A DNA stretch of 64,000 nt from Chondrosia reniformis (taxonomy: Eukaryota; Porifera; Demospongiae; Chondrillida; Chondrillidae): assembly GCA_947172415.1 (NCBI GenBank), contig OX359191.1, positions 8,913,130 through 8,977,129 on the forward strand, written 5' to 3'. Below the pieces are notes generated by a model. It was given only the letters and a program-made list of their open reading frames with translations, made no database searches and had not been told where the DNA came from. Both the position numbers and the translations under genes were made by a program. Shown piece after piece: positions 12,795 to 47,000 of the stretch (positions are counted from its first letter, which is position 1; the number at the start of each line of letters is the position of its first letter).

Positions 12795-12802
12795 TCACGT
12801 GA
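12795..12802. promoter_or_regulatory. TCACGTGA E-box palindrome at SPR start
   Basis: A perfect TCACGTGA palindrome lies 9 bp upstream of the chosen SPR start codon on the minus strand and overlaps the alternative upstream ATG. It resembles the two sites upstream of MAD2L2. Function is inferred from sequence only. Confidence 0.35.
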
Positions 12803-13058: not shown

Positions 13059-14630
13059 TTACAGTTGTCCACTTAAAACTGATAGGATTACCCAAAAGGT
13101 TTCTTTTACTCCTTCATATCTTATAATATTGCCTGTAAATTTCAATGTAGGCATCCATGAATTAATTATTGAAAGTAAAGACGATAGTAGATTTCTTCTT
13201 ATCAGTGGAATAGTCAACCTTTTTCTAGAGATGCTTGCACAGCCAAACTTTGAGCATATTGGAGGGTTCTCCCCATCTCCTGTCCTGACAACTGCAGCCT
13301 TAATAGCATCTGAAAGTGTTCCACCAGCACGACAGAACAGGAGGGCCAGACTGGTTTTGCTCATATACTCCTCCTTCTTGTTGTTAATCAAATCTTGATT
13401 CATTAATTCTCTCATTTTCTTTGCAATACTTGGGGTAAAACTTGGGTTCTCACCAAACAGCTGCACCAGCCTTCTCTGGATCATTTGATTGGATGCTTCT
13501 GTTGAGATACGAATAGGTTGCTCCTCACCAAAGAAATTAGCCAAATCTAACTCATTTTTGCTTGGAATTCCTTGAACAAAATTATTGATGTCAAAGCTAT
13601 AGTCCAAGGCACGTTCTCCGTAGATAATTTGCTTTGGAGAAGGTTTCTTCCCAGTAGTAAGTTCAGTGACACAAATAGCTGCTTTACGGAGGTAGTGGCA
13701 ATTATAAGTTTGGAGAACTTTCTCATTTCCCATTTGAATCAGATTCATCAAAGTAACAGAAGAGCTTGGATGACCCACTGCAACACCTTCTTCACACACA
13801 CTGGCCCAAATTCCGTTTGCACCCTCCATCAGGCATTCCAATTGTACCTGCTGTGCCATACCCCACCTCTCATGAACATGGATCAACAGATTCCCTGATG
13901 CCCATCCATTCTTCTCCATTATTTTCCGGACTCCTGCAGTCCAAGCTGCGACCTCTTCTGGTAGAAATTGACCTGAGGCTTCTTCTACTAATATCGCCTT
14001 GGGCTTCATGCAAGATGGAAGTCTTGCGAGATACGAAACGATTGCTAGCAACCTGTCCGGAGCGATTTTCATCACGACGTGGAAATCTCTAAAATTTACC
14101 ATAACTTTGGACTCTTTGGACAAATTTTCATTAATCCATTCAATTCGACAAAGCAGCAATTTCCAAATTTTCTCCACGCCAAATTTCGCGTAGTCCACTT
14201 CGCTGTCGGCAAGATCTATTTCGAGGATAGGATTAGGTAGGCCAAGCTCCTTCATCTTTATTAAACCGGTAGGAATAACCTCATCTGGAACGCCTTCAAA
14301 TACACATTCTCTATATTCCACGAGACAATACATCGCGCAAACATCTTCTCCTAGTTCTATTAGCAGCTTAACGAAATGATCGTCCACGCGATTCGTATGA
14401 TCTAACCACGCTACGATTATTTCTTTAAAGCCACACTTCTTAACTTCTTCGTAGATTTTTAGCTTATTTTCAAGCGTGTGGCCCCTAATTTGGCCGACAG
14501 TGCTTTCACGGATCGAATTATCAAGAACGAAACAGTTTAATTCTCGCAGGCGATTCCGTCTATTTTGGGCAACACTAAAGCCTCTTCTAATGTGGGTAAT
14601 ACTTTCAGCAACATTCGAATCTCTTTCCAT
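13059..14630 (-). CDS. HMGL-like DRE-TIM enzyme, divergent paralogue without EF-hand
   Basis: Intronless gene of 523 codons when started at MERDSNVAESI (14630); the frame is open upstream to 14783, but the paralogues at 31482 and 40608 begin at the equivalent position. It shares the block LDNSIREST and GHTLENK, the HxH pair in IHVHERWG, and ECLMEGANGIWASVCEEG with those two. These correspond to the metal-binding landmarks of the DRE-TIM metallolyase superfamily (HMG-CoA lyase, isopropylmalate and homocitrate synthases). The protein is roughly half identical to its paralogues up to CRAGGTLSD, then diverges into an unrelated basic tail of about 90 residues. The EF-hand region of the others is absent. 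Substrate is unknown. It lies between SPR and ALDH4A1 on the same strand. Confidence 0.72.
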   Translation of the reverse strand: MERDSNVAESITHIRRGFSVAQNRRNRLRELNCFVLDNSIRESTVGQIRGHTLENKLKIYEEVKKCGFKEIIVAWLDHTNRVDDHFVKLLIELGEDVCAMYCLVEYRECVFEGVPDEVIPTGLIKMKELGLPNPILEIDLADSEVDYAKFGVEKIWKLLLCRIEWINENLSKESKVMVNFRDFHVVMKIAPDRLLAIVSYLARLPSCMKPKAILVEEASGQFLPEEVAAWTAGVRKIMEKNGWASGNLLIHVHERWGMAQQVQLECLMEGANGIWASVCEEGVAVGHPSSSVTLMNLIQMGNEKVLQTYNCHYLRKAAICVTELTTGKKPSPKQIIYGERALDYSFDINNFVQGIPSKNELDLANFFGEEQPIRISTEASNQMIQRRLVQLFGENPSFTPSIAKKMRELMNQDLINNKKEEYMSKTSLALLFCRAGGTLSDAIKAAVVRTGDGENPPICSKFGCASISRKRLTIPLIRRNLLSSLLSIINSWMPTLKFTGNIIRYEGVKETFWVILSVLSGQL

Positions 14631-30108: not shown

Positions 30109-31401
30109 ATATAGAGAGCCAACCTATACCGTTATACCAGGCAGCTAATATTTTAAGATAAAATAGATTTATATAGTGTGCCAGCAAAGGTCTCCATGAA
30201 GTTCATCTCCTGCATATAGAAATGTATATACATTAATTGGTTGGCCAGGGCTATATATGATATGGATTGCACTATGCAGTCGACACTATGAAATCTATAC
30301 CATATACTCATCTTAATAATATATTATTATAAGTCCCATAAAAGAGTTCGAATTTCTATATAGACTATATATAAAAGAGTACTAGACTAAGTTCTATAAT
30401 ATCATGTATGGAGGAAAAGCCTAGTTGTCATTTCCTTTCAATAAAGCCTGGTACAGGGTAGGTACTAAATTATGTCACATTAGAAACACTACAACTGCAG
30501 CTGCAAGACTTTATAGGAATATATACAGATTAGTGCAAGTATTATACTGCATATATTAAGTAAACCAGGGAAGATTTAGAATTAAAAGGAACTTGTAAGG
30601 GGAGAGAGGTGTTATAGTACTTTATTTGAGGTGGATGAAACTGGTTTATAAAATGAAGAACTGTTCAAAAATGTTCCCATGCACCCATGTATGTATGCAT
30701 GCTCTCATATATGTATATTTCTGTCTTATATAACTTTTATGGCAGTTTTAACATGCACTTAAAACTATATATTTGACTTTCAACTGAGTGCCCCTTAGTA
30801 TGTTATATTACATGAAAAGACTATATATACATGAAGAAATACTGAAAGAAGGTATATATATGTTCGTATATGTTTGCATTGTGTTAAATACTATATATAT
30901 ATTATATGAAATAGCCTCAGGAATTCAAAAGAAACAGCTAGTGCTCATACTCAATCAATTTTAAAGATTTTAAAAGAAAGCCACAATTTGTAGGAAGTAT
31001 ATATTAGGATTCCTATATAACTTGATGCCATTGACTTTTCTGTATATATAGGCATCAGAGCTGCATGATGCTCATGCACACTGTGTAAATATGAACAGCT
31101 TGTACGTGCAGCTTAATCATATATAAACTTACAAACCAACCATACAATATATGGTAGCTGCATGGTGACTTGGTAGCGATGCATAGTCTATTTATACGTG
31201 TCCAGGTATAGCCTTGTGCCCCTTAACCAACTGCATGGTTGGCATTTACCTACACGTTAACTGTCTGTATATGCACGGCCGCGGGCACTTTATAATAGAC
31301 ACAGAAAAGTGATTTAATGGCCTATAAAGGTTATACAGTTAATAAAATTATAATCATGCCATACACACGTGCACATGTTCAAAAGCACCTGCAATTCAGG
31401 C
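30109..31401. other. Intergenic AT-rich region with the 5' flank of the duplicated unit
   Basis: No gene seen. 30330-30710 closely matches 35266-35770 (for example GAGGAAAAGCCTAGTTGTCA and AAAGCCTGGTACAGGGTAGG in both), and 31314-31481 is nearly identical to 40440-40607. Together these show that the 5' flank of the HMGL-EF gene was duplicated along with it. Confidence 0.7.
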
Positions 31402-31409
31402 TATATAAA
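31402..31409 (+). promoter_or_regulatory. TATA box of HMGL-EF copy A
   Basis: TATATAAA, 80 bp before the ATG, in a stretch that is conserved base for base at the same distance in copy B (40528-40535). A TATA box is unusual among the genes of this window and suggests a sharply regulated or inducible promoter. Confidence 0.6.
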
Positions 31410-31481
31410 TGTAGCAAGCACTAGTCTGAATCATTAAACCATCGATCTAAGCAAGCTCTTGGAATAAGCCTCACGATCAGA

Positions 31482-33185
31482 ATGACTACTATTGATGAGA
31501 CTGTCGCCCAAATAAAGGAAGACGTTGCTAAAGAGCTCGAAAAACGACAGCGTCTCCGAAAGTTAGACTTGTTTGTGTTGGACAATTCCATCCGTGAGAG
31601 TACCGTCGGTCAACTCCGCGGTCACACGCTAGAGAATAAATTTAAGATTTTTGAGGAGGTCAAAAAATGTGGCTTTAAGAATATCGTGGTAGCGTCATTC
31701 GCTCATATGACTCGTGTAGACGACGATTTTGTGCAGATGCTACTTGCAAAAGGTGAAGATCCTAAAACTTTGTTCAGTTTTTCAGAGGTAACGGAGAGCG
31801 TCAAGAAGGGTATTCCTGACACGACGACCGTTCCGGTTGGCTTAAAAAAGATGCAACAATTCCGCCTACAAAATCCAATCCTTGAAATTGATCTAGTCGA
31901 CAAAAGGGTCAAATACAAGAAATTTCCCACTGAGGACGTTTGCCAGCTACTTCTGCACTGGATCGAATGGTCAATTAAATATCTTCCTGGAGATCCAAAG
32001 ATTTTGGTGAACCTGCGTGATTTCCCTGATGCCATGAATCAGGCGCCCGAACGAGTGATAGCAGTTGTGCAGTTCCTAGCAAATTTACCTAAAAAGAAGC
32101 GCCCTTTCGGAATCATGTTTGAGGAACCTACTGGTCGATACCTACCAGAAGAGGTTGGAGCATGGACGGCTGGTGTTCGTAAGACCATGCAACAGAACGG
32201 ATGGGAAGCGGGGAAGCTGCTGGCGCACGTGCACAAGAGATACGCCCTTGGAGAGGTGGTTCAGCTGGAATGCTTGGTCAATGGGGCAAATGGTATCTGG
32301 GCCGGTGTTTGCGAAGAAGGAGCTGCTATGGGCCATGCATGCTCAATCGTTACGTTGATCAATCTTATTCGTATGGGGAATAAAAAAGTACTGGAAAGCT
32401 ACAACTGCAGCTATTTGAGAACAGCAGCCATCAATGTAACGAGGATAACCACTGGAAGGGACCCACATCCAAAACAAGTAATATATGGGGACCGTGCCCT
32501 TGATCTCAGTTTTGATTTTGGTGGGATAGGTGGAGGCATACTGGATAAAAAGGAATTTGATATGGCCAAGTTTTTTGACGAAGAGGCACCCATACGAATC
32601 AGTACCCTAGCTTCCAACAGTATGATTGCAAGAAGGCTGATACAGCTTTTTGGTGACAATCCGCAATTTACAGAGGAAACTGGGCAGAAGATGAAGGAAG
32701 TCATGATTGAAGACTTGAAACAAAACAGGAAAGAGGAGTATATGAGCGAAGTGGGAGTGGCCATTCTATTTGATCGTGCAGGGGGGAAGCTGACACCTAA
32801 AATGCAGGAAGTAATCCAGAACATTGAAGTAAATGGGGTTCACGAAAGAGAATTGCTTGCAAATATCCGCGAGATCTGGGATGCTTGGGATCTAAAGGAG
32901 CTTGAAAAAGGAGATGATGCCTTGGAGTTCCATTCTTTCTACAATGGCTTTATGGCTCCATATTTTGGCTGCTACAGATGTGATGACACAAGACAAGGCC
33001 TCCAAGCTATTGATATGGACACCGATGGCTTTGTGGATTGGGGTGAATTCACAGTGTATCTGAAGTGGGCTTTGCATCAGTATCCTCAAATCAAAGATGC
33101 AGATGAATTGCTATCAGTTGCCTTCCGTAAGGGTCTTATTCCTGCAATGCGTGACGAAATGCTAAAGAATAGAAAACCGAAGTAA
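31482..33185 (+). CDS. HMGL-like DRE-TIM enzyme fused to EF-hand region, copy A
   Basis: Intronless, 567 residues. Residues ~30-300 resemble the DRE-TIM metallolyase barrel. D34-x-S-I-R38-E39 fits the D-x-T-x-R-(D/E) start motif; LLAHVHKRYALGE gives the H249-x-H251 metal pair; QLECLVNGANGIWAG plus GAAMGH285 occupies the place of the N-G-x-G...G-N motif, with His where Asn is usual. Residues ~300-450 are helical, like the accessory region of synthases in this superfamily. The C-terminal ~110 residues hold an EF-hand pair: a degenerate loop (ID..LEFHSFYNGF, ~465-490) and a canonical one, DMDTDGFVDWGE (511-522), followed by a basic tail. No signal peptide or transit peptide is evident. It is one of three paralogues in the window, 94-95% identical to copy B. 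Reaction unknown; Ca2+ control of a lyase or aldol-type synthase is an inference. Confidence 0.75.
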   Translation: MTTIDETVAQIKEDVAKELEKRQRLRKLDLFVLDNSIRESTVGQLRGHTLENKFKIFEEVKKCGFKNIVVASFAHMTRVDDDFVQMLLAKGEDPKTLFSFSEVTESVKKGIPDTTTVPVGLKKMQQFRLQNPILEIDLVDKRVKYKKFPTEDVCQLLLHWIEWSIKYLPGDPKILVNLRDFPDAMNQAPERVIAVVQFLANLPKKKRPFGIMFEEPTGRYLPEEVGAWTAGVRKTMQQNGWEAGKLLAHVHKRYALGEVVQLECLVNGANGIWAGVCEEGAAMGHACSIVTLINLIRMGNKKVLESYNCSYLRTAAINVTRITTGRDPHPKQVIYGDRALDLSFDFGGIGGGILDKKEFDMAKFFDEEAPIRISTLASNSMIARRLIQLFGDNPQFTEETGQKMKEVMIEDLKQNRKEEYMSEVGVAILFDRAGGKLTPKMQEVIQNIEVNGVHERELLANIREIWDAWDLKELEKGDDALEFHSFYNGFMAPYFGCYRCDDTRQGLQAIDMDTDGFVDWGEFTVYLKWALHQYPQIKDADELLSVAFRKGLIPAMRDEMLKNRKPK

Positions 33186-33848
33186 TTTCAGGCTGATCAA
33201 CTACGTACAAATAGACATAGATATTATTGCTGGTTGTTCAAGTATACTCAACTATATAATCTCAGAATTAGGAGAGAACTACAATGTATTACTATTAATC
33301 AATTTCTGTAATCATGTTATGCTGCAGTTGAATGATTGAAATATATAGTTAAACAATGTGTACTGACATATAATATCTAGATTTCCATATTAAGTGTCAA
33401 AGTGCTGGCAGCTGTCTCGGTAATAAAATGAAGCCCAGGGAGCCTGGGTCACAAAAGAGACTTCAGCTTTGTGCTTCCAAAAAGTGATTTGTGGATGGAT
33501 TTGTGGCTTTATAAACATAGGTGGCTCTAATGGCTCTTTTGTGTCTTTGTCCCCCTTTTAGGATAACTATTGTAGCTACAAGTATCAAATATCATCAAAC
33601 TGTAATTACTCATTAGCCTAATGGATGTGATATTATTATATAATTAGCAGTCATTACAAAAAGATCCTGTAAAGAGATCACTTGTTACAAAGCCTGGTAC
33701 ATGGTAGTCATAAATCATGTCATATTAGAAGCACCACTATTGCAAGACCACTTTTATATAGGAATATTAAATATTCCCACACTACTGATTAGTTATTAGC
33801 GTTGGCATGAAAATGGTTACCTTACACAATGAAGGCATAATATATCTT

Positions 33849-34378
33849 CCAATAGCCTCCAAACCAGGAGGAAGTTACATACAATGAGGATTATCCTACA
33901 GTGCAGAACGGGCTTAGCTCCTAGCTACCTCTCCAAGCTTTTCAACCAATCTCACACAGCTATGGCACTAGAAATTCCTCCTCAGTCTTAACAATTCCAA
34001 AATACAACCGGCAACAAACCAGCTGCTCTTAATTTCTCCATTCAAGCTGCCAAACTATGGAATAGCCTCCCGAAGCATCAAGGAATACCAACCTGCAAGC
34101 TTTAAGACACCTCAGGCATATATCAGTCACCTAACCAAACTCACAACCACTCATCTTACACATCTTACATCCTAAATTATCTGCAATTGTATTTAAATTT
34201 TTATTTTAATCTGTATTATAAAGATATATTTTTCCCTTATTTTTTTATCATCTATATATATTTGTATCCACCCCACTCCCTCTTATAACTTATCTATTGT
34301 AACTTGGGCCCACTGTAAATTAGCCCATGGCTAAGGGGTACCTCAGTATAAATAATAATACTAATAATAATAATAATA
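33849..34378 (+). mobile_element. 3' end of a CR1/L2-like LINE inserted in copy A flank
   Basis: The plus strand encodes the typical LINE C-terminus RTGLAPSYLSKLFNQSH..., then AAKLWNSLPKHQGIP, broken by stops, followed by a 3' tail of (TAA)n. A 5-bp direct repeat ATCTT flanks it (33844-33848 and 34379-34383). The corresponding site in copy B (about 43071-43090) is empty and reads straight through ATATATCTTTAAAAAGG. The insert is therefore 5'-truncated and post-dates the duplication. Confidence 0.75.
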
Positions 34379-34959
34379 ATCTTTAAAAAGGTAAATTTGA
34401 TTAAAAAAAGTTAAATTTGCCCTATCTCTCACCATACATTAAGTTTGTATACTAAAATTTATTATACATTTTGTGCTATGTTGAATTGCTGTGAATGATG
34501 TACTTTGTAATTAACTTGAAATACTGTACCCTAGATTACTTATCCTCCAAAAATACCGTTATCATAAGAATGGGAAAGTGCCAACCACAATTGTTTTCTT
34601 TCAAAACAGCAAAACGCTATATATCTAGCAGACCTACGTGGTTATCACTGAAGGTCATGGATGATATCGTTTGGTATGGCCCAATTTATTTTTTAGAGTT
34701 TTCTTAGCTGTCGATTGAAGACTTTTCTCTAACTACATCTTGTATCATAACTCTTTCAAAAAAAACACTTCTAGCTAAAACTTGGCCATGCGACAATTCA
34801 GAAACAGCATACCATTTGAGATTAAACCTTTCACAAACTGCAATCACTACAACTTAGTATAATGTACATTTTAGAGCTGCAACTCTTCAAATGAACTGAT
34901 ATGATCCTAATACTTGGTGTCAACATTCCCAGACATTTATAAACCACACCCTAGCCTTT

Positions 34960-35256
34960 ATAAGCATTTATAAGCATAACCTGATTAAAACAGAGAGAGC
35001 TTTTTTTAGTATCAAACATGATTGGTGCAAGAGAGGAGAAATTAGACCATATGTGTTTAAAAGGATTGTTAGAGCATTAATTTTTCCAATTTTTGACTAT
35101 GGGAGCTTGATCTGGAGCCCTTTTATAGGACGCCCTAAGAGAGAGGTGATGAATTTGAAGATAGCTAGATTTTTTCTAGGAGTCAGCCCCTTGCATCCCA
35201 TTAATGCAGTGGAAAACGACATGGGGTGGGAAACGACAACAGAAACGTACATTTAA
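34960..35256 (+). mobile_element. LINE reverse-transcriptase C-terminal fragment
   Basis: Open frame with IKTERAFFSIKHDWCKRGEI, then KRIVRALIFPIFDYGSLIWS and MNLKIARFFLGVSPLHP..AV. This is the thumb-side region of non-LTR RTs (LFD.LV.PIL.YGSEVW...LGV...). It ends abruptly where the duplicated 5' flank resumes at 35266. Truncated at both ends. Confidence 0.6.
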
Positions 35257-35265
35257 TTATATATA

Positions 35266-35810
35266 TATAAGTCCCTAAAAGAGTTAATTGATTATAATAT
35301 CATGTATGGAGGAAAAGCCTAGTTGTCATTTCCTTTCAACCTTTCAATAAAGCCTGGTACAGGGTAGGTATACTAAATCATATCACATTAGAAACACTAC
35401 AACTGCAGCTGCAAGATTTAATTTATAGGAATATTCCAGATTAGCGCAAGTATTATACTGCATATATGAAGTAGAACAGGGAAGATTTAGAATTAAAAGG
35501 AACTTGTAAGGGGAGAGAGGTGTTAGTACTTTACTTATTTGAGGTAGAACAAACAATTATATTAATATCATGCAGGCTATATATGCAAGGGTCATATGGA
35601 ATTAAGGTGGTTGGCAAAGTATGGTATATATATATTGACTGCATGGGTACTGATGAATCAGATACATGCAGTAAGAAAATGCCATATATACATATCTCTA
35701 GAGCCGAAACCGGTTTATAAAATGAAGAACTGTTCAAAAATGTTCCCATGCACCCATGTATGTATACTCTCATATATAGGTGCACTGTATATTTCTGTCT
35801 TATATAGACT
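35266..35810. repeat. 5' flank of the duplicated unit (second copy)
   Basis: Near-identical to 30330-30730. In copy A this flank lies ~0.8 kb from the gene; here it is ~4.8 kb from copy B because TIR and foldback elements and a CPQ fragment lie between. Confidence 0.75.
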
Positions 35811-35920
35811 ATATAACTTGTGGCTAAAGTCTTGTAGCGTTTAATATACCTGATTGTAATTATTTTTGGAGCCATTTGCATCCGTATTATCAGAGTATAC
35901 GGTAGTAATCTCTAAGTATT

Positions 35921-37199
35921 GCGTAGCCCAGACCGCTATTTCGCCTCCATATTTTCTTGATGACGTCACACGGTCGGCGAAATATTATGGTCTGGTGAAT
36001 AGCAGGGCCGGCGGCATAGGGGCGGCCGGGGCGGCCATAGCCGCCCCACTTTTTTGGTCATAACAAAATTTTGCATCAAAACCTAACTGTTTATACCTTT
36101 AAGGCTTGAACCGCTCGAGCATTTTGTTGCAATCAACGCTGTATGTAGTCAGACTTTACCGACCTCCATTTTCTAATGACGTCATCGACGCGTACGTGTT
36201 TCGTTACCTGACCTACATGCGCCCAAACTGGGTCCCATACTCATTTTGTGACTGTAAATACGTGTCACCACGCCTTCTCGGACGTTTCCGCGCTCGTACA
36301 CAGTATCACTATGGCCCAGCGAATTGGTCCTATGATGGTTCAGACTGGCAGAGAATTTGTTATGGGCAGAAAGGGCAGATTAGGGACATTTAGTAACTTT
36401 AAGTAATATGTTTTTGTTTATATAGTAAAATACAGGAAATATACAAATTTACCACATGCATGCAGGTGCATGTGCACACGTTTTTGTTGTTTGTAGCTTG
36501 TATTTATGTAATAACTCTGTTCAGGCTCTGTTTAACTATCTGACTCGGATGTAGCAGCTATATATTGTATGTATACAGGTCTATTTGAGCTAGGCACTTT
36601 AAGGCATGTAGTACAAGTGAGTGATAGCTACAGTGTCACATAGCTAAGCAGTTTGAAGGTCACATAGCTGGAGAATGAAGTGACTCCAATCACCAGATTA
36701 GCTCACAGGGATAATTGTATGAGATATAGGACCAGAAGCCTCATTGGCCTCCCCACTTAAAAAGAACTGGCTCCGGCCCTGAATAGCCTATATACACCGT
36801 TTTTGTTCTGAGCCACCGGAACTTGGTGGCTCTTTAATATTCAGTTACCATGGTAATAATGATATTCATACCTTATAACGCGTTGTAACCGAGAAAGGCT
36901 TCGCGAATTGTAACGTTGCCAGCTGTAGAGAGCAGCGCGATGGAGCTTTGTTGCTTCGAAATTGTTGTCAGAATTTACGACACCGTACATGAGTTTGCTA
37001 ATCGATCAACCTGCAAAGCGCCGACTTTCCACTGTTTGCGAAGTAATTTCGTTTCTAATCGTTTTGTTAACGGAAGTTACTAGTTACTAGTTAGTTACGC
37101 CCCCCAGAACAAAAACGGTATATTCCACCAGACCCTATTTCGCCGACCGTGTGACGTCATCAAGAAAATATGAAGGCGAAATAGCGGTCTGGGCTACGC
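35921..37199. mobile_element. 1.28-kb element with ~80-bp terminal inverted repeats
   Basis: Left end 35921-36002 and right end 37123-37199 are almost perfect inverted copies (GCGTAGCCCAGACCGCTATT... with TGATGACGTCACACGGTCGG). A second nested inverted pair, ATACACCGTTTTTGTTCTG near 36790 and CAGAACAAAAACGGTATA near 37105, marks an inner element. No transposase is visible. A hAT-like element is inserted just inside the left TIR. Confidence 0.75.
36004..36779. mobile_element. Nested hAT-like non-autonomous element
   Basis: Ends AGGGCCGG (left, preceded by C) and CCGGCCC(T) (right). It is flanked by the 8-bp direct repeat TGAATAGC at 35996-36003 and 36780-36787. An 8-bp target duplication and CAGGGCCGG-type ends are hAT features. 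The interior has no transposase ORF. It interrupts the 1.28-kb TIR element, so it is younger. Confidence 0.7.
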
Positions 37200-37404
37200 G
37201 ACTATTCTGTAAGTAGGGATGGCCCGAAAAAAAAATGGATGCCGTAATTCAATGTATTACGGTAGGCAGCGAATGCGTTTTTACCTCTTTTAACCTCGTA
37301 ATGTGTCTTTTTTGTACGATTTCAATTGAGGGAAGCTGTTTTCAAGAGCGCATAAAGGCTCCAAGTTTGTAAAACGGTTTCAGGCCTACTTCCGGTTTTC
37401 CTCA

Positions 37405-37765
37405 TTGGGGCGCCGCAGGCGCCCCTATATTGTTTTCAGAAATTATGTTAACGTATGGCTTCCTGTTCGTAGTCTTGTATATCTGTCAAAAAATGGCGGA
37501 CGTTCGGCTAGCTTTCGTTTTCTAGCTTAAAATTAGCTTTCTCTTCCTTAGCGTAGAACATTGAACAAACGAAATGGACTTAAAAACCACCCTTACTAAT
37601 ATTATGTAACGTAAAGCTTGCGCAAAAACGTTTTCTACGAGATATGGCCTTGAAAAATTGACGGCCAACAAGAGTCGATCGGAAATCGGTTAACCGGATA
37701 TCTATGAGAACCAGCCAAGTAGTTCGAGTTTACTTAGGGGCGCCTGGCGCCCCACGAGTTTTTTT
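37405..37765. repeat. Segment bounded by GGGGCGCC/GGCGCCCC palindromes
   Basis: TTGGGGCGCCGCAGGCGCCC (about 37406) and GGGGCGCCTGGCGCCCC (about 37738) are two hairpin-forming GC palindromes ~330 bp apart in otherwise AT-rich DNA. It is probably another non-autonomous element; no coding sequence. Confidence 0.4.
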
Positions 37766-37882
37766 AAACTCGAACTACTTGTTTTCTTATTCTTATTCTT
37801 ATTCTTCTTCCTTTTATTTCACGCTAGTGCATAAACGCGCTTGTAGATAAATACATCTTAGGGGCATATCGTCTAAAAGTTC

Positions 37883-37884
<2 letters not shown>

Positions 37885-37941
<57 letters not shown>
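37885..37941. repeat. (TTA)n microsatellite
   Basis: About 18 TTA/ATT trinucleotide repeats. Confidence 0.95.
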
Positions 37942-37943
<2 letters not shown>

Positions 37944-37994
37944 ATTTGAGTGCTTCATGTGCTATGCACACTAGGTCTATTTAGACCCATGAAA

Positions 37995-39370
37995 AATCTA
38001 AGATACCATTTTCCTACATGCTATGCCTATTCTGTTAAAAAAGCCTATAGGGGAACTAAACCTGAAGAGAGCTTTGGATGAAGATACAGGAGTCTTTTCT
38101 TCCTTCTTTTCCCTTCTTTCATTTCTTCTCCACTGGGTCAGACAGCCGTTTCTGGGAATTCCACCCTTCTTCAGTGATCCTGGGAGTCTCTGTCTTTTTC
38201 TTTGTCTTGATCTTCTGTGAATCCTTGGCATGTAGCACTATACAACGATACATAATAGTCAAAACTGATGAATGTCTACAGTTTTGCCTTTCCCTTTCCC
38301 TTTATATATATACGTAGCTAATCAGTCATGCATTAATTGAATTCTGTGATTTAATTTCCCAGACATACGTATGTATGATTAAAAACCTGATATCTAGCTC
38401 AATAGTTCATGTTGCATACATATCACAGAAACCACAAAATTCAAAATTAATATTGACCTTCAATAGTGACCTTCAGCTTAATGGGACTGTAGCCTTCCAA
38501 ATGCACCATGTTGACTTGTCTGTTGTTTTTATTCATGGGATGCACTTTCACAATGTGATTAATCTAAATATATACAACATTTACACCATATAAAAACATG
38601 TTATAGTCAATTAGCTCTATTATTGATTGTCTGTTGTTTGTTGATGAATATGATGCATCTACTAATCCTAATGGCCTAAACCTTTTTGCCCACTTTATAC
38701 CTTATATAACATAAACAACAATGTTTATAGATATATATGCTATTATATCATTAGTCTATATGGTTAATTGGTATGTATAATTGAATAGGAAAGGTTGAAG
38801 TGGTGATGGAGTATATTGTAGGAAACACTTTACTGACATATTTTATATATTTTATTTAGTCAATCGCTACAATACATAAGTGAGCTCCAGGGCACATGGG
38901 AAAACTATATAATCACAGAAATATACAGTATTAACATTAAATTAATATTTAATATGAGTGGATAAATGATATATCATAATGAGTAAACATGCATTAGGAG
39001 TCCGGGTCAGTCATAATCATGGCTGATTGATCATGAACTCTCCATCTTCTCCAGTGTTTTTGGAAATGTGATGGTCTATAGCTGAGGAATCAAAGGGAAG
39101 CAGGACCAATTATATACACCACTGGTTTCTACTGCTACCGGACTGAAATGGTGCATGGATTCACAAAAGATCAAGAAACATACAAAACCAGGGTCACTGA
39201 TGAATGGCGGAATTCCCAAAAACATCTGTCTGGCCCATAATAAAGAGAAGACTCCTGTATCCCCATCCCATGCATGCAAACTCTCACCAGGTTTAGTTCA
39301 CTATAGGCTTTTTACATTATTACAGAGCAGGCATATAGGATGTAGTAAAAGTGTATTACTTTATATTCAT
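37995..39370. mobile_element. Foldback pair: two inverted ~230-bp copies of the dispersed repeat
   Basis: 37995-38235 and 39140-39370 are inverted copies of each other (GGAACTAAACCTGAAGAGAG, TCTTGATCTTCTGTGAATCC on one side; their complements on the other). The ~900 bp between them are AT-rich without a recognisable gene. It is either one foldback element or two independent insertions of the dispersed repeat in opposite orientation. Confidence 0.6.
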
Positions 39371-39662
39371 GTATTCCAGCAAGCAATGATTACAAGCAAC
39401 AGTGACCAAAACCACTTAATGGTATAACACAAGTGTTTACAGAGCCAAAAACATATATAACCAACATAACCCCTACCTTTTTATTATTAATTATAAATTA
39501 AATGTTTTTATTAGCAAAGTATGTGCACACAAAAATAGTTATTATAACTAAAGTCATGCAATTGGAATAATAATTACACAAATGCTCTATAATGAAAACA
39601 ATCTCTAGCTATAGCTAATTTTATAATGTTAAAGCAATGTCCATTGATCAGAGTTCATTGAA

Positions 39663-40372
39663 TTAACGAGGGAGCTTATCGTTCATGTCAGCCAGAATAA
39701 AGGCGTAGATGGCCCACACTACAGTGCAAAGGTCAATATTATCAGGGTCTTGGATACTCATATTGTCTGTAGGTGAATGGTGGTACCAGAAGTACCTTTC
39801 TCCTTCATACACATTGGAAAGGCTTCCAGTTGGTACATTCAATGATTGCCAATCCCCTATGTCTGAAATACTGGCAGAGTTAAAAAAAACCTTGAGGCAT
39901 CAATTCCTTTCAAGTTTTTCAAGTAGGTTCCTCCGATGAGCTCGAGTATGGATTTAGCTTTTTCTGAACCTGTAAATCTGATCCCAGTTGGAGTGAAGGT
40001 TGCATCATCACTTTTAAACATAAATATATATATATATACAAGGTTACGAACAGGAAGCCATACATTAACATAATTTCTGAAAACAATATAGGGGCACAAT
40101 AAACATTTAAGTTCATGAAACATCTGTATGGCATATATACCTCATATATCATCATGCAGCTACCTGAATAGGTCATTTTTCCTCCCTAGTAGCCCATCCT
40201 AATAATAAAATGTACAGATATTCTATATTATGCTGACAATTAAGTTTGAAACAATGAAATGAATGTGAATATATACATACATGTCGATGAGAAAGACTAA
40301 CATAATAGTCTCTGATATATTCCAATGTTGACTTGTTCAGCTGCTTGCATCATCCTGCGCCCTGCATAAAAA
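39663..40372 (-). pseudogene. Broken 3' fragment of carboxypeptidase Q (M28 metallopeptidase)
   Basis: The last segment 40015-39663 reads FTPTGIRFTGSEKAKSILEL, then after a one-base frameshift in an A8/T8 run (39882-39889) ISDIGDWQSLNVPTGSLSNV, RYFWYHHSPTDNMSIQDPD and WAIYAFILADMNDKLPR-stop. This is the C-terminus of CPQ/PGCP (..FFFHHS.GDTM.VMDP...). Upstream pieces at 40196-40162 and about 40372-40285 are degraded: AAEQ..GIYQ and DYYVSLSH, which together look like the WTAEEQGGxGAxQYY region, lie in different frames. The N-terminal two thirds, with most zinc ligands, is absent. The fragment ends ~70 bp from the duplicated promoter block of copy B. Confidence 0.65.
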
Positions 40373-40527
40373 GGTCAATATTGTTCAACTCATGAATCAC
40401 ATGGGAGCCATACAGACTGGTGGATTTTATATAACTGAATTAATGGCCTATAAAGGTTATACAGTTAATAAAATTATAATCATGCCATACACACATGCAC
40501 ATGTTCAAAAGCACCTGCAATTCAGGC

Positions 40528-40535
40528 TATATAAA
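40528..40535 (+). promoter_or_regulatory. TATA box of HMGL-EF copy B
   Basis: TATATAAA, 80 bp before the ATG, identical in spacing to copy A. The surrounding ~165 bp differ from copy A at only a few positions. Confidence 0.6.
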
Positions 40536-40607
40536 TGTAGCAAGCACTAGTCTGAATCATTAAACCATCGATCTAAGCAAGCTCTTGGAATAAGCCTCAC
40601 GATCAGA

Positions 40608-42311
40608 ATGACTACTATTGATGAGACTGTCGCCCAAATACAGGAAGACGTTGTTAAAGAGCTCGAAAAACGACAGCGTCTCCGAGAGTTAGACTTGTTT
40701 GTGTTGGACAATTCCATCCGTGAGAGTACCGTCGGTCAACTCCGCGGTCACACGCTAGAGAATAAATTTAAGATTTTTGAGGAGGTCAAAAATTGTGGCT
40801 TTAAGAATATCGTGGTAGCGTCATTCGCTCATATGACTCGTGTAGACGATGAATTTGTGCAGATGCTACTTGCAAAAGGTGAAGATCCTAAAACTTTGTT
40901 CAGTTTCTCAGAGGTAACGGAGAGCGTCAAGAAGGGTATTCCGGACACGACGACCGTTCCGATTGGCTTAAAAAAGATGCAACAATTCCGCCTACAAAAT
41001 CCAATCCTTGAAATTGATCTAGTCGACAAAAGGGTCAATTACGAGAAATTTACCACTGAGGACGTTTGCCAGCTACTTCTGCACTGGATTGAATGGTCAA
41101 TGAAATATCTTCCTGGAGATCCAAAGATCTTGGTGAACCTGCGTGATTTCCCTGATGCCATGATTCAATCGCTCAAACGAGTGATAGCAGTTGTGCAGTT
41201 CCTAGCAAATTTACCTGAAAAGAAGCGCCCTTTCGGAATCATGTTTGAGGAACCTACTGGTCGATACCTACCAGAAGAGGTTGGAGCATGGACGGCTGGT
41301 GTACGTAAGACCATGCAACAGAACGGATGGGGAGCGGGGAAGCTGCTGGCGCACGTGCACAAGAGATACGCCCTTGGAGAGATGGTTCAGCTGGAATGCT
41401 TGGTCAATGGGGCAAATGGTATCTGGGCCGGTGTTTGCGAAGAAGGAGCTGCTATGGGCCATGCATGCTCAATCGTTACGTTGATCAATCTTATTCGTAT
41501 GGGGAATAAAAAAGTACTGGAAAGCTACAACTGCAGCTATTTGAGAACAGCAGCCATCAATGTAACGAGGATAACCACTGGAAGGGACCCACATCCAAAA
41601 CAAGTAATATATGGGGACCGTGCCCTTGATCTCAGTTTTGATTTTGGTGGAATAGGTGGAGGCATACTGGCTAAATGCGAATTTGATATGGCCAAGTTTT
41701 TTGGCGAAGAGGCACCCATACGAATCAGTACCCTAGCTTCCAACAGTTTGATTGCAAGAAGGCTGATACAGCTTTTTGGTGACAATCCGCAATTTACAGA
41801 GGAAACTGGGCAGAAGATGAAGGAAGTCATGATTGAAGACTTGAAACAAAACAGGAAAGAGGAGTATATGAGTGAAGTGGGAGTGGCCATTCTATTTGAT
41901 CGTGCAGGGGGGAAGCTGACACCTAAAATGCAGGAAGTAATCCAGAACATTGAAGTAAATGGGGTTCACGAAAGAGAATTGCTTGCAAATATCCGCGAAA
42001 TCTGGGATGCTTGGGATCTAAAGGACATTCAAAGAGGAGATGATGCCTTGGAGTTCCATTCTTTCTACAATGGCTTTATGGCTCCATATTTTGGCTGCTA
42101 CAGATGTGATGACACAAGACAAGGCATCCAAGCTATTAATATGGACACCGATGGCTTTGTGGATTGGGGTGAATTCACAGTGTATCTGAAGTGGGCTTTG
42201 CATCAGTATCCTCAAATCAAAGATGCAGATGAATTGCTATCAGTTGCCTTCCGTAAGGGTATTATTCCTGCAATGCGTGACGAAATACTACAGAATAGAA
42301 AACCAAAGTAA
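40608..42311 (+). CDS. HMGL-like DRE-TIM enzyme fused to EF-hand region, copy B
   Basis: Intronless, 567 residues, collinear with copy A without indels. About 30 substitutions, several clustered: NQAPE to IQSLK near 186, DKKE to AKCE near 355, ELEK to DIQR near 473. All barrel landmarks (D34, R38, E39, H249, H251, H285) are kept. In the EF-hand loop the first residue is Asn instead of Asp (NMDTDGFVDWGE), which would be expected to weaken but not abolish Ca2+ binding. Reading frame and promoter are intact, so both copies are probably expressed. The duplication includes 165 bp of promoter and ~1.6 kb of 3' flank. Same functional uncertainty as copy A. Confidence 0.75.
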   Translation: MTTIDETVAQIQEDVVKELEKRQRLRELDLFVLDNSIRESTVGQLRGHTLENKFKIFEEVKNCGFKNIVVASFAHMTRVDDEFVQMLLAKGEDPKTLFSFSEVTESVKKGIPDTTTVPIGLKKMQQFRLQNPILEIDLVDKRVNYEKFTTEDVCQLLLHWIEWSMKYLPGDPKILVNLRDFPDAMIQSLKRVIAVVQFLANLPEKKRPFGIMFEEPTGRYLPEEVGAWTAGVRKTMQQNGWGAGKLLAHVHKRYALGEMVQLECLVNGANGIWAGVCEEGAAMGHACSIVTLINLIRMGNKKVLESYNCSYLRTAAINVTRITTGRDPHPKQVIYGDRALDLSFDFGGIGGGILAKCEFDMAKFFGEEAPIRISTLASNSLIARRLIQLFGDNPQFTEETGQKMKEVMIEDLKQNRKEEYMSEVGVAILFDRAGGKLTPKMQEVIQNIEVNGVHERELLANIREIWDAWDLKDIQRGDDALEFHSFYNGFMAPYFGCYRCDDTRQGIQAINMDTDGFVDWGEFTVYLKWALHQYPQIKDADELLSVAFRKGIIPAMRDEILQNRKPK

Positions 42312-43930
42312 TTTCAGGCTGATCAACTACGTACAAATATATAGACACAAATATTATTGCTGGCTGTTCAAGTATACTCAACTATATAATCTCAGAATTA
42401 GGAGAGAACTAAAGAATGTATTACTATTAATCAATTTCTGTAATGTTATGCTGCAGTTGAATAATTGAAATATATATGTAGTTAAACAGTTTTTAACAAT
42501 GTGCATGTATACTGACATATAGTATCTAGATTTCCACAGAATAAAGAGTCAAAGTGCTGGCAGCTGTCTATAGGAATAAAATGAAGCCCAGGATCACAAG
42601 ACTTCAGCTTTGTGCTTTCAAAAAGTGATTTGTGGCTTTATAAACAGATGGGGCTAATGGTGTCTTTGTCCCCCTTTTAGGATAACTATTGTATCTACAA
42701 GTATCATGAGACCGGTAATTACGCATTAGCCTAATAGATGTAATATTATAGTATAATTAGTAGTCATTACTGTATCCTGTAAAGAGATCACTTGTTACAA
42801 AGCCTGGTACATGGTAGTCTGACATAGCCCGACCACCGTCCTGCCTCCATAGCAAAATGGAGGCTACGTCAAAATGGAGGAAGAATCGTGGTCGGGCTAC
42901 GTCAGACTAGGTACATGGTAGTCATAAATCATGTCACACTGTTGCAAAACCACATTTATAAAGGAATATTAAATATTCCCAGTTAAGATTGTGTTCCTTT
43001 GTAATGATGACATTCTACACTACTGATTAGTTATTAGTGTTGGCATGAAAATGGTTACCTTAAGGAAGGTCAGTATATATCTTTAAAAAGGTAAATTTGG
43101 TTAAAAAAGTTAAATTTGCTCTATCTCTCACCATACATTAAGTTCGTATACTAAAATTTATTTATACATTTTGTGCTGTAACTCAATCAAATGATATGAA
43201 ACTACGCTTGGCATTAACATATTTAGAAAACTAATATGAATTGAAAGCATTGTACCATAATTATTATCATAAGACCATAATGTAAAATCCTTAATTTTCT
43301 ATACATGGGGTCAGATAGGCTGTTCTCCTTGGCCTATTAAGACACATACAGAATCTTATCTTCTCTTATCTATTTCCTCCAGTTTCTAAATGAACCACAA
43401 ATACTGAAAATATATACGTATATAATTGCTGTGAATGATGTAATTTTGTAATTATTAAACTTGAAATACTGTACCCTAGATTACATATCTTCCAAAAGTA
43501 CTGTTATAAGAATGGGAAAGTGCCAACCACAATTGTTTTCTTTCAAAATTTTGTTGTTCAAAAAGAACAACAAAACGTTATATAGCAGGCCTACCTGGTT
43601 ATCACTGAATGTCATGGATGGTATTGTTTGGTATGGCCCAATTTATTATTTAGAGTTTTGTTAGCCGTTGATTGAAGACTTTTCTCTAATTACATCTTGT
43701 GCCATAACTCTTTCAAAATGCAACACTTTTAGCTAAAACTTGGCCATGCAACATTCCGGAAACAGTGGACCCTTTGAGATTAAACCTTTCTCAAGCTGCA
43801 ATCACTACAATTCAGTATAATGTATATTTTAGAGCTGCAACTCTTCAAATGAACTGATATGATGCTAACACTTGGTGTCAACATTCCCAGACATTTATAA
43901 AGCACACCCTAACCTTTATAATAATTCTAA
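42312..43930. repeat. 3' flank of the duplicated unit (paired with 33186-34960)
   Basis: The sequence follows copy A downstream of the gene for ~1.6 kb, e.g. GGCTGATCAACTACGTACAA, AGAATGGGAAAGTGCCAACC and ACACTTGGTGTCAACATTCC in both, with small indels. Copy A has the LINE insert; copy B has the MITE at 42815. No genes are supported in either flank. Confidence 0.85.
42815..42909. mobile_element. 95-bp MITE with 9-bp target duplication
   Basis: Terminal inverted repeats TAGTCTGACATAGCCCGACC and the complement of GGTCGGGCTACGTCAGACTA. Flanked by GGTACATGG at 42806-42814 and 42910-42918. The orthologous site in copy A (~33701) is empty. A 9-bp duplication suggests a Mutator-like family; the interior is a second palindrome (CCTCCAT/ATGGAGG). 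Confidence 0.75.
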
Positions 43931-44073: not shown

Positions 44074-47000
44074 ATGTATGAGGATTTATCCGTGGCATAC
44101 CTTGACATAGAGAGGGAGGCGGACCTGCTGTTGTCGGGATTAGCAATGGCCACCAGATCTACTGGCAGCATGATGCACGTACTATCTACAGGAAAGCAGA
44201 ACAATGAAGCGGATCGGCTGACTAGAGATAATAGTACGCCATCATCCGCTGGATCGGAGAGAATTCACTCGCCTGACGGTTTTGGAGAGAGACAGGGAGC
44301 TTCGCTTTCCCCTTCTCGCGTCAAACCAGCTTTAAGCGATGAAGAAGCCGCTTTGGAAAGAGAAATTAGGTTATTGAGTGTGTCAAATTTTAATTCTGGC
44401 GAGATGAGTGGTTTCGATGTTAATAAACGTTCTTGTGAGAATGTATCTTGTCCTAAAGATGGCTCTAAAGATCTCGAGACAAAGAAGAATTTAAAGAAAT
44501 TGGCCAACAGGTGGAAACATTTCGCAGATTCATATGGTAGGTAATCTTTTGCGTTATGTCATGAGTTTAAATACACTATTTACAATCGTAGTCGCTTTTC
44601 CTTGTACAGTGTTAATAAATTGCGCTAATTATCTGTAAATTACCATGTTCATTCAACCCTTTGTACTGTGAAATTGACACGAATGCGCAGATAGTGACTG
44701 TGAAAGGTTGGCGATGTACAGAAAATATAATACAAAACAATTTAAAGGCGTTTATTGAAGGAACTTTGTACAGTTGTGAATGCTGTTTGTACAAGTACCA
44801 GAATACAAGCACGAGGTACAGTAAGTCACTAACAAACTTGTTTAATTGTATCTCGTAGGCTATTGTGTTGAATGTGGGAAGGAGGTTATGGACGCTGAAT
44901 TGGGTTGTGAGGCATTAGGTAAAGTGTACCACACAAAGTGCTTCAAGTGTAAGAAATGTGGTAAGTGGAATATCTTCTTCTGTAATCTATTGCTAGCTTT
45001 GCTAGTATACAGTACACTCAATGATTTGTAGGTGCTATCTTGGTAGGGAAGATGTTTTTTAGCATTCAGGGAAACATATTCTGTGAGAAGGATTACCTGG
45101 TAAGTAGAAGGTTTCTCTTTATTCTATTGGAAAATGTTTAGTTTACCAGAGCCATGAAAGGCCTATCCTTTACACTTCAGATATGTCTTATCATAATATA
45201 TACAAACAATAATATTAAATATTTCAAATGCTTTAATTTGATGAAATTGACCATTTAAGGACACCACCCACATTATAAACATGGAAATTGCTAGAACTGC
45301 ATTCCATTCAAATTCCTTAACACCACATCCACAACTACATAGGCAACACCAGCTGCCGCAGTGATTGATGTATATGTGTGTTTATTGCAGGAAACCTTTG
45401 AAAAATGCTACAAATGCAAAGAGCCAATCACTGATAAAGTATGTATAACATTATTACCAACATGCATGCAATAGTGTTCAATTATCCAAGTGTGTCAGTG
45501 AGTGCTGACGCAAGAGAACTTTGGTTTCCTAAACTCGTTCACCTGGGGCGGTCTCTCCATAATATTCATTTATGAGTGTTTGTGATTTAATGTGAATGAT
45601 TATGTTTGCATAGAAATTGATATAAAATATGCCTTTTACGTTTTGTATTTTGTAGATAATTAGGGCTTTGGGCGAAGCATTTCATCACAGTTGCTTCAAA
45701 TGTTCAGTTTGTGAGAAGAAGTTGGATGGGGTTCCCTTCACTGTGGATGCCTATTCTCAGCTGTATTGTGTAGAGGACTTTAACAAGTTAATCCTGCTAA
45801 TATACTATCCAATGAATAATCTAACACACCATTTTCTTACATGTTAAAGTAAAGACCTATAGGGAACTAAACCTAGTGAGAGCCTTGGATGATATTATTA
45901 TGTAACACTACCATTTTAATGTATTTACCATGAAGACATAGTATTATTTATGAGTTAAGTATTAACAAAACAATAAATAACAGCAATATTTGTGTTCATT
46001 CTACCCAGGGTTCAATCTAGTGGGGAAGCCCCTCCCCCGAAATATGTTTCCTAAAACCCTTCAACCTGACTCTAATATATCCCATTAACTGAAATGAGAA
46101 TACAATGTCTACCTGAAATCTTATCTATTTCATCCTATATAGTCTCAAACTTGATCTGTGCATATACTAAATGTGTTTCTCCTCTGTAGCAAATATGCTC
46201 CTAAATGCGGTGCTTGTAAGAAGCCTGTTATACCAGTGAAGGTATGTAGAAATACTCAACTAAGACATTTGTCAGCTTGTCTTTCCTATAAAACTGTTAT
46301 CCTATACCTGATCATCAGACACAGTTGACTTGTTTGTATGTACTTACACACTATAGAACACCAATTATCCATTTCCTGACACACTGTAAATATACCTTTT
46401 TGTAGGATTCAAAAGATAACTTCAGAATAGTTGCTATGAATGAAAGCTTCCATCCACAGTGCTACAAGTGTGAGGTTAGTGGAGCATGCCTCAGTCACAC
46501 CTCACATACACCCTCACAGTCACACCTCACATACACCCTCACAGTCACACTTCACATACACCCTCACAGTCACACCTCACATACACCCTCACAGTCACAC
46601 CTCACATACACCCTCACAGTCACACCTAACAGTCACACCTCACATACACACTCACAGTCACACCTCACAGTCACACCTCACAGTCACACCTAACAGTCAC
46701 ACCTCACATACACACTCACAGTCACACCTCACAGTCACACCTCACAGTCACACCTAACAGTCACACCTCACAGTCACACCTAACAGTCACACCTCACATA
46801 CACACTCACAGTCACACCTCACATACACACTCACAGTCACACCTCACAGTCACACCTCACATACACACTCACAGTCACACCTCACATACACACTCACAGT
46901 CACACCTCACATACACCCTCACAGGGTTGCCAACCTCAAGTTGAAAGTCATGAAATGACAAAATAGGGAAACTCCCAATAAATCAGGAGAGTTAGCAACC

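What the first reader, a model, noticed from the sequence alone, without database searches (positions are those of the whole stretch)
31482..42311. Tandem pair of intronless genes fusing a DRE-TIM (HMGL-like) barrel to a C-terminal EF-hand region
Both 567-residue proteins carry D34..R38-E39, H249-x-H251 and an N-G...G-H285 block that fit the metal site of isopropylmalate/homocitrate synthases and HMG-CoA lyase. They continue into a canonical EF-hand loop at 511-522. A metallolyase or Claisen-type synthase with its own calcium sensor is not a fusion I know from animal metabolism. A TATA box at a fixed 80 bp, recent duplication and lack of introns suggest a regulated, possibly horizontally acquired enzyme. 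It could act in leucine-like chain extension, secondary metabolism or a calcium-gated process.
Basis: partly seen in the sequence, partly recalled or inferred. Interest (0 to 1): 0.82.

Follow-up and report, generated by a model that had tools for sequence, protein, structure and literature searches.

The report
Three ilborin genes, one lacking EF-hand
These genes encode ilborin, a marine-invertebrate protein described in 2022 that joins a metal-dependent enzyme barrel to a calcium-binding tail, so the find is mostly a known family, with a tail-less copy next door and bacterial cousins.

Summary
Two 567-residue ORFs carry D34/R38/E39, H249-x-H251, N270-G271...G284-H285 and an EF-hand-like tail. 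[quoted passage not shown] The fusion is not new: in every feature tested it matches ilborin (Borisenko et al. 2022, PMC8864356), a major protein of sponge larval flagellated cells with unproven function. Added here: (1) a third paralogue at 13062-14630 (minus), about 56% identical, with no EF-hand found in the window, whereas the paper calls the EF-hand a feature of all orthologues; (2) copy 2 has Asn at the first EF-loop position, and the copy 1/2 pair shows no detectable purifying selection; (3) a gammaproteobacterial homologue, 57% identical, with the EF-hand; (4) a distant EF-less bacterial clade beside PAS-GGDEF genes in 3 of 3; (5) an active-site fingerprint that keeps the metal site but not the acetyl-CoA residues of a Claisen-type synthase, plus an invariant Glu214. 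Leucine-like chain extension is therefore unlikely. Horizontal acquisition is possible but unproven. Reaction, Ca2+ effect and host are inferred, not shown.

The parts
31482..33185 (+). copy 1: ilborin-type gene, 567 aa, single ORF; barrel about 30-340, conserved linker 341-440, EF-hand region about 453-533
40608..42311 (+). copy 2: ilborin-type gene, 567 aa, 95% identical to copy 1; EF loop position 1 is Asn (N511)
13059..14630 (-). copy 3: diverged paralogue, 523 aa from the ATG at 14630 (the frame is open further upstream), 55.6% identical to copy 1 over residues 2-445, no EF-hand region (unrelated tail of 75-80 aa)
31581..31598 (+). copy 1 D34-N-S-I-R38-E39: DRE motif (R38 = superfamily arginine, E39 = metal ligand position)
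   Evidence: position roles from PMC11532901 (passages)
32226..32234 (+). copy 1 H249-V-H251: metal-binding HxH
32121..32126 (+). copy 1 E214-E215: E214 invariant in the family; at the carbamyl-Lys position (recalled) of an oxaloacetate decarboxylase in a weak local alignment
32334..32336 (+). copy 1 H285 (GH), at the Asn position (GN) of the synthases
33012..33047 (+). copy 1 EF-hand loop residues 511-522 (DMDTDGFVDWGE), canonical
42138..42173 (+). copy 2 EF-hand loop residues 511-522 (NMDTDGFVDWGE), Asn at position 1
31307..34963 (.). duplicated segment, left unit (93.8% identical over the first 2.4 kb, broken similarity after)
40433..43921 (.). duplicated segment, right unit
31402..31409 (+). 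TATATAAA, 80 bp upstream of the copy 1 ATG (the same 80 bp upstream of copy 2)

Best explanation
The locus is a three-gene cluster of ilborins (my estimate for membership of copies 1 and 2: 0.95). Ilborin is a probably cytosolic DRE-TIM metalloenzyme with a C-terminal EF-hand region. Shown by sequence: the barrel belongs to the DRE-TIM superfamily, the metal and catalytic set R38, E39, H249, H251 is intact in all three copies, and copy 1 has one canonical Ca2+ loop, preceded by what looks like a degenerate one. Inferred: a divalent metal held by E39/H249/H251 (perhaps with H285 or E214) binds a 2-oxo or 3-hydroxy carboxylic acid, R38 stabilises the enolate, and the enzyme makes or breaks a C-C bond as an aldolase or lyase, without acetyl-CoA. 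Ca2+ binding to the EF-hand modulates or stabilises the enzyme. Copy 3 would be a Ca2+-independent version, and copy 2 may be less Ca2+-sensitive. The barrel likely came from an EF-less bacterial DRE-TIM protein like L004/L005/L011, with the EF-hand added before bacteria and animals came to share it. Stated confidence is for the whole mechanism, not for membership.
For: Family match: architecture, length, molecular weight 64.7/64.6 kDa, pI 6.05/5.68, no strongly hydrophobic 19-residue segment, several paralogues and the same Arg/Glu/His-x-His set as in PMC8864356. Barrel: hhalign 95.4%, E 1.8e-8 over 280 columns; Foldseek ranks 1-9 all DRE-TIM enzymes; three distant bacterial members hit PF00682 at 4.2e-6, 6.4e-5 and 5.9e-4, under cut-off, and citramalate/homocitrate synthase models at down to 4.2e-6, far under cut-off; family HMM against 8 reference enzymes, E 3.6e-15 to 0.47 (five of the eight had been brought in by similarity to this family). 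Catalytic set invariant. Copy 1 vs copy 3: dN 0.34 with dS saturated, i.e. long-term constraint. EF loop pattern in copy 1 and L001. Against acetyl-CoA chemistry: only three invariant His (249, 251, 285), none after them.
Against: No enzyme activity or Ca2+ binding was measured here, and the 2022 paper says functional studies lie ahead. AlphaFold2 confidence is low (mean pLDDT 53.7 for the whole, about 30-45 in the tail). The tail folded as a single sequence gave pLDDT 49 and no EF-hand match. Pfam EF-hand hits are under cut-off and copy 2 has none at E <= 1. The paper allows Asn at EF position 1, so N511 may not weaken binding. Window sequences alone against the DRE-TIM alignment reached only probability 17.8, and the family against single references 1.0-16.7. 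A very abundant larval protein could be structural. Membership could not be tested against deposited ilborin sequences.
Confidence: 0.55

Rival explanations
1. It is a Claisen-type synthase: acetyl-CoA plus a 2-oxo acid gives an alkylmalate, Ca2+-regulated.
For: Best canonical matches are citramalate/isopropylmalate/homocitrate synthases; arginine, metal carboxylate and HxH are present.
Against: The Gln after RD is Val42 (6 of 6), the substrate Thr of the PDT-G strand is Pro/Ala/Asp216 (7 of 7), and no His is conserved after residue 285. In MAMS the alanine mutants of Gln93, Thr257 and His388 were inactive, though H388N kept a kcat 25- to 35-fold lower (passages). The registers come; those of Thr257 and His388 were fixed by counting and by eye.
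Confidence: 0.12
2. It is mainly a structural, storage or Ca2+-buffering protein that has kept an enzyme fold (pseudo-enzyme).
For: Reported as a major protein band of larval flagellated cells and seen around choanocyte flagella (PMC8864356).
Against: The metal and arginine positions are invariant across animal and bacterial members, and copy 3 keeps the barrel without the EF-hand.
Confidence: 0.2
3. It is an HMG-CoA-lyase-like ketogenic or pyruvate-carboxyltransferase-like enzyme of energy metabolism, as proposed in the ilborin paper.
For: The paper's HHpred hits to homocitrate synthase and HMG-CoA lyase; Foldseek ranks human HMG-CoA lyase 9th; the OAD-type GH motif aligns with G284-H285.
Against: The one canonical HMG-CoA lyase tested was the worst of 8 references in the HMM test (E 0.47), and the best local hhalign to it was 33 columns. 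The carbamylated lysine of carboxyltransferases (recalled) is Glu214 here (weak alignment).
Confidence: 0.13
4. The L001 bacterial homologue is a mis-binned contig (of a eukaryote or another bacterium), so this gammaproteobacterium does not carry the gene. This is a side question and not an alternative to the three above.
For: It sits on a 6.1-kb MAG contig, and none of 39 further genomes of its genus had a match at E <= 1e-5.
Against: 86-bp spacing to a 1357-aa cyclase-ATPase-TPR gene, about 50% GC, both genes uninterrupted. The ilborin paper independently reports two cyanobacterial proteins of the same domain structure.
Confidence: 0.15

Closest known systems
Ilborin (Halisarca dujardini ilborins A-D; Borisenko et al. 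2022, Open Biol 12:210336)
   Same: aldolase-type TIM barrel plus C-terminal EF-hand, 560-610 aa, acidic, several paralogues, conserved Arg, Glu and His-x-His, no significant Pfam hit
   Different: one of the three window genes lacks the EF-hand and one has Asn at loop position 1; sequence identity to deposited ilborins could not be computed here; the paper's two in-situ-probe primers have no site in the window at up to 3 mismatches
Citramalate/isopropylmalate synthases (Claisen-like DRE-TIM, TIGR00977/CimA, LeuA)
   Same: barrel fold, D-x-x-x-R-[DE], HxH, G-x-x-x-P after the strand before HxH
   Different: no Gln after RD, no Thr in the PDT-G strand, no conserved post-barrel His, an EF-hand region at the C-terminus
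Oxaloacetate decarboxylase / pyruvate carboxylase carboxyltransferase barrels
   Same: HxH and a GH motif where the synthases have GN (weak alignments only)
   Different: the carbamylated lysine (recalled) is an invariant Glu214; no biotin domain seen
EF-less bacterial DRE-TIM proteins L004/L005/L011 (no family name found, 430-441 aa)
   Same: 27-29% identical to copy 1 over residues 110-440, all metal residues, E214 and H285
   Different: end at the linker, no EF-hand; lie beside PAS-GGDEF genes

Membership tests
Ilborin family (PMC8864356) | TIM barrel followed by a C-terminal EF-hand | tested here: met
   Met for copies 1 and 2 by barrel profile and loop sequence, though EF Pfam scores are under cut-off or absent and the tail model is inconclusive; not met for copy 3
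Ilborin family (PMC8864356) | length 560-610 aa, acidic, no signal peptide or TM segment | tested here: met
   567 aa, pI 6.05/5.68, highest 19-residue hydropathy 1.24 for copies 1 and 2 (a crude test; no signal-peptide program was run); copy 3 is 523 aa, pI 7.49
Ilborin family (PMC8864356) | conserved substrate Arg, metal Glu and two metal His | tested here: met
   R38, E39, H249, H251 in 3 of 3 window copies
Ilborin family (PMC8864356) | sequence clusters with deposited ilborins MT559266-MT559269 | not testable with these tools
DRE-TIM metallolyase superfamily | TIM barrel with D-x-x-x-R-[DE] on strand 1 and HxH on strand 7 | tested here: met
Pfam PF00682 HMGL-like | score over gathering cut-off (29 bits) | tested here: not met
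   no PF00682 hit for the three window copies; L001 15.7, L004 19.8, L005 26.8, L011 22.9 bits
Claisen-like DRE-TIM subgroup (IPMS, MAMS, HCS) | acetyl-CoA Gln after RD, substrate Thr, catalytic post-barrel His (as in MAMS) | tested here: not met
   V42; P/A/D216; invariant His only at 249, 251, 285; registers partly by eye
EF-hand | 12-residue loop D-x-D-x-D-G-x-[ILV]-x-x-x-E | tested here: met
   copy 1 and L001 match, copy 2 fails at position 1 (Asn), copy 3 and the 3 distant members have none (pattern recalled)
EF-hand | helix-loop-helix fold | tested here: inconclusive
   helices flank both loops in a very low-confidence model; the tail alone matched no EF-hand structure
EF-hand | Ca2+ binding and Ca2+-dependent conformational change | not testable with these tools
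   needs calorimetry or terbium binding on purified protein

The most novel reading that the evidence does not exclude
Ilborins plus their EF-less bacterial sister clade form a DRE-TIM subgroup, undescribed as far as reach, with its own metal sphere (invariant Glu214 at the carbamyl-lysine position and His285 at the asparagine position) and CoA-independent chemistry. Bacteria built it next to second-messenger enzymes (cyclase, PAS-GGDEF) and coupled it to Ca2+, and early animals acquired it as a Ca2+-switched enzyme. Some animals then split it into Ca2+-sensitive, Ca2+-blunted and EF-less paralogues, as in this window.
Probability: 0.2. Interest if true: 0.7.

Novelty: new member of a known kind. 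Interest (0 to 1): 0.4.

Why it matters
Ilborin is reported as a major protein of sponge larval flagellated cells, and its reaction is unknown. This window supplies a natural set for testing: a copy with an intact Ca2+ loop, a copy with a changed loop and a copy without the EF-hand. The active-site fingerprint points to metal-dependent lyase or aldolase reactions without acetyl-CoA. The bacterial relatives give intronless proteins for assay and hint at a link with second-messenger signalling.

Tried and rejected
Pfam and NCBIfam scans of the window proteins gave nothing above cut-off. phmmer against the PDB gave only weak EF-hand hits for copy 1 (calcineurin B E 0.46, polcalcin E 0.6). With the family profile, PDB hits were mostly DRE-TIM enzymes but weak (best E 0.039, mixed with G-protein chains). 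L005's best PDB hits were an unrelated cyclic-nucleotide-binding protein (0.0025) and an oxaloacetate decarboxylase (0.0028). No relatives of copy 1 in phages or plasmids or of L001 in plasmids. The plasmid hit for L005 (Burkholderia stagnalis, 23%) is by its motifs a canonical DRE-TIM gene and served only as a reference sequence. Three viral-contig scans found no relative. The folded tail gave no EF-hand match; I had meant to give an alignment but sent one sequence, so this test is weak. Profile comparisons of the family with single canonical sequences were weak (LeuA probability 16.7, HMG-CoA lyase 1.0, OadA 1.3). Only the comparison with a 4-sequence DRE-TIM alignment was strong, and one of those four (L012) had been found by similarity to L005. 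G372's 18-bit, 64-residue match was not followed. Intronlessness and base composition as evidence for horizontal transfer were rejected: unrelated neighbours are also long single ORFs, and GC is 0.41-0.45 in copies and neighbours (third-position GC of copies 1 and 2 is a little higher, 0.45 against 0.38-0.42). A paper on prokaryotic genes in the Amphimedon genome (PMC4784904) has none of five terms for such an enzyme in its main text (passages by word search; supplements not opened). The TATA-at-80-bp argument was rejected because the promoters are duplicates. The host is not identified: the paper's H. dujardini primers did not match the window, and a sponge or other early-branching animal is inference.
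Full report
WHAT IS THERE. Both ORFs exist as described: 31482-33185 and 40608-42311 on the + strand, 567 codons each, no interruption, 537/567 residues identical. By Nei-Gojobori counts they differ by 11 synonymous and 32 non-synonymous changes (dS 0.031, dN 0.024, ratio 0.79). That is not significantly fewer non-synonymous changes than neutrality predicts (binomial P 0.30). The duplication covers about 3.6 kb with gaps (31307-34963 against 40433-43921), including the promoter, so the shared TATA at 80 bp is inherited and not independent evidence. Of the 30 amino-acid differences, 5 fall in the two EF loops as I drew them (26 of 567 positions; P 0.009, chosen after seeing the data). One is D511N at the first ligand of the canonical loop in copy 2; the ilborin paper notes that Asp or Asn is usual there.

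A THIRD COPY. The finding does not mention a third paralogue on the minus strand at 13062-14630 (523 aa from its ATG). It is 55.6% identical to copy 1 over residues 2-445. Against copy 1 its dN is 0.34 with saturated dS, so the barrel has been under constraint. It ends in an unrelated tail of 75-80 residues. A tblastn of the EF region against the window finds only copies 1 and 2 at significant E, so within this window copy 3 has no EF-hand.

THE FOLD. Pfam and NCBIfam see nothing above cut-off in the window proteins. Relatives bridge the gap. A prokaryote scan, which used two short peptide patterns, found one close homologue, L001, in a gammaproteobacterial MAG. Genome searches found three distant homologues of 430-441 aa (L004, L005, L011), which touch PF00682 at E 5.9e-4, 4.2e-6 and 6.4e-5, all under its cut-off. 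The 7-sequence family alignment against four canonical DRE-TIM proteins gave probability 95.4 and E 1.8e-8 over 280 columns; window sequences alone gave 17.8. A family HMM scored seven of eight reference enzymes at E 0.0068 or better in that 8-sequence set, best an isopropylmalate synthase at 3.6e-15, and missed an HMG-CoA lyase (0.47). Five of the eight (L007, L008, L009, L012, L020) had been fetched by similarity to this family, so only the other three (LeuA 3.2e-4, OadA 0.0068, HMG-CoA lyase 0.47) are an independent check. AlphaFold2 on window plus L001 sequences had low confidence (pLDDT 53.7) but gave an alternating strand-helix pattern. Foldseek then ranked DRE-TIM enzymes first to ninth (LeuA, homocitrate synthase, citramalate synthase, isopropylmalate synthase, HMG-CoA lyase), with 8 matches at E <= 0.001.

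THE ACTIVE SITE. In register with the references, D34/R38/E39 sit on D-x-x-x-R-[DE] in 5 of 8 (two of these in segments of insignificant score; the other three were not aligned there) and H249/H251 on HxH in 7 of 8. In MAMS the residue after the arginine and the two histidines bind the metal (PMC11532901, passages). The same paper reports that alanine mutants of Gln93, Thr257 and His388 were inactive, while H388N kept weak activity. Here the Gln position is Val42 and the Thr position is Pro/Ala/Asp216, and the only invariant histidines are 249, 251 and 285. The acetyl-CoA machinery of that synthase is therefore missing. E214 is invariant in 7 of 7 members, where the five references that aligned have Pro, Cys or Ala. 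It aligns with the lysine of an oxaloacetate decarboxylase in a weak local alignment (probability 1.3), so its equation with the carbamylated lysine (recalled) is a lead, not a result. H285 stands where five references have Asn, one has Met and the decarboxylase has His.

THE TAIL. Copy 1 residues 511-523 and L001 residues 407-419 (numbered from the contig edge) match the EF-hand pattern (recalled); 48 of 20,000 shuffles of copy 1 do. Pfam EF-hand scores are under cut-off (copy 1 E 0.087; L001 E 9.7e-4; copy 2 none at E <= 1). The full-length model puts helices at 453-468, 479-495, 501-508 and 520-533 around two loops, at very low confidence. The first loop (470-483) lacks the ligand pattern. 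The tail folded alone gave no EF-hand match. The EF-hand reading rests on the loop sequence and its conservation, not on a model.

WHAT IT IS. A text search for 'pyruvate carboxyltransferase' with 'EF-hand' returned the ilborin paper, whose main text I read in parts 1-5 of 7. Ilborins have an aldolase-type TIM barrel (22-354), an EF-hand region (458-540) with a Ca site at 514-526, 560-610 residues, several paralogues in many species, no significant Pfam hit, conserved Arg, Glu and two His (the first two absent only in shortened sequences), and remote similarity to homocitrate synthase and HMG-CoA lyase. They occur in sponges, cnidarians, ctenophores, one flatworm and echinoderms, with two cyanobacterial homologues and a full-length HHblits hit to a Hondaea protein. 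Copies 1 and 2 fit the features I could test. I could not compare sequences directly. A search for 'ilborin' in the library found only this paper, so within the library searched no function has been reported since.

WHAT IS ADDED. (1) Copy 3 departs from the paper's statement that the EF-hand is a characteristic feature of all orthologues. (2) L001 is 56.8% identical to copy 1 over residues 110-440, about as close as copy 3 is (57.6%), and carries the EF-hand; copy 3 and L001 share 51.5%. L001 lacks the first 109 residues at the contig edge. It lies 86 bp before a 1357-aa protein with cyclase, AAA ATPase and TPR-like domains (the TPR hits are under cut-off). The family is rare where I could look: the close homologue appeared only in its own genome among 398, 244, 150, 369 and 40 genomes at phylum, order, family, class and genus level (overlapping draws, profiles and E limits differing from 1e-3 to 1e-8). 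Other matches in those draws were two distant members, a fragment match not followed and four canonical DRE-TIM ORFs judged by their motifs. A draw of 46 genomes around G489 gave two distant members, one of them new. Only one phylum could be reached this way. (3) The distant EF-less clade lies beside a PAS-GGDEF gene in 3 of 3 genomes and a MerR gene in 2 of 3. (4) The tree of 7 sequences separates the distant clade clearly but leaves L001, copy 3 and copies 1/2 unresolved, with long branches (support 44/0 for the three window copies together; alternatives p-AU 0.44 and 0.51). Transfer between bacteria and animals is possible, but its direction and date cannot be told.

HOW IT LIKELY WORKS. 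Shown: superfamily, metal-site residues, EF loop sequence. Inferred: a metal-bound 2-oxo or 3-hydroxy acid undergoes aldol or retro-aldol type cleavage or decarboxylation without CoA; Ca2+ on the EF-hand tunes it; copy 2 may be, and copy 3 should be, freed from Ca2+. The relaxed divergence of copies 1 and 2 and the changes in the EF loops agree with this but do not prove it.

VERDICT. A well-seen observation and a correct fold call. The fusion is a described family, the suggested chemistry is unlikely, and the useful additions are the EF-less paralogue, the bacterial relatives and the active-site fingerprint.

Noticed in passing
17316-19056: Minisatellite of about 1.7 kb, C-rich on the + strand (GC skew -0.66 in 18001-20000), lying among aldehyde-dehydrogenase-like exons on the minus strand (18867-21439; Pfam Aldedh only for 20930-21439 at E 4.1e-4, under cut-off; the rest by eye).
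   Followed up: partly
20052-20470: 21-bp tandem repeat, 20 copies, 94% matches, near the same ALDH-like exons, open in several frames on both strands.
   Followed up: no
46492-46924: 13/25-bp tandem repeat encoding His-Thr-Ser-rich peptide, directly after a LIM-like exon fragment (by eye).
   Followed up: no
901-1308 and 2696-2995: Minisatellites open for coding (24-bp and 30-bp units), the second inside a 789-aa ORF at 1536-3905.
   Followed up: no
11971-12801 (-), 22362-23093 (+), 26782-27873 (-): Other long single-ORF genes: a short-chain dehydrogenase directly downstream of copy 3, a proline N-methyltransferase and a protein kinase (Pfam; cyclin-dependent type by eye).
   Followed up: partly
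34900-35253: Reverse-transcriptase-like fragment (by eye; no Pfam hit at E <= 0.001) at the edge of the left duplicated unit.
   Followed up: partly
L001:1458-5531: Cyclase-AAA-TPR-like protein of 1357 aa, an architecture resembling soluble adenylyl cyclase (recalled), next to the bacterial EF-hand DRE-TIM gene.
   Followed up: partly
L004, L005, L011 (L016-L018): Bacterial DRE-TIM family without a name found, beside PAS-GGDEF (3 of 3), MerR and NAD-dependent epimerase (2 of 3).
   Followed up: partly
window residue C277 of copies 1/2 (32310-32312, 41436-41438): Cys conserved in copies 1-3 and L001 but not in the 3 distant members, 8 residues before H285, close to the spacing of the catalytic loop Cys in HMG-CoA lyase (recalled).
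   Followed up: no
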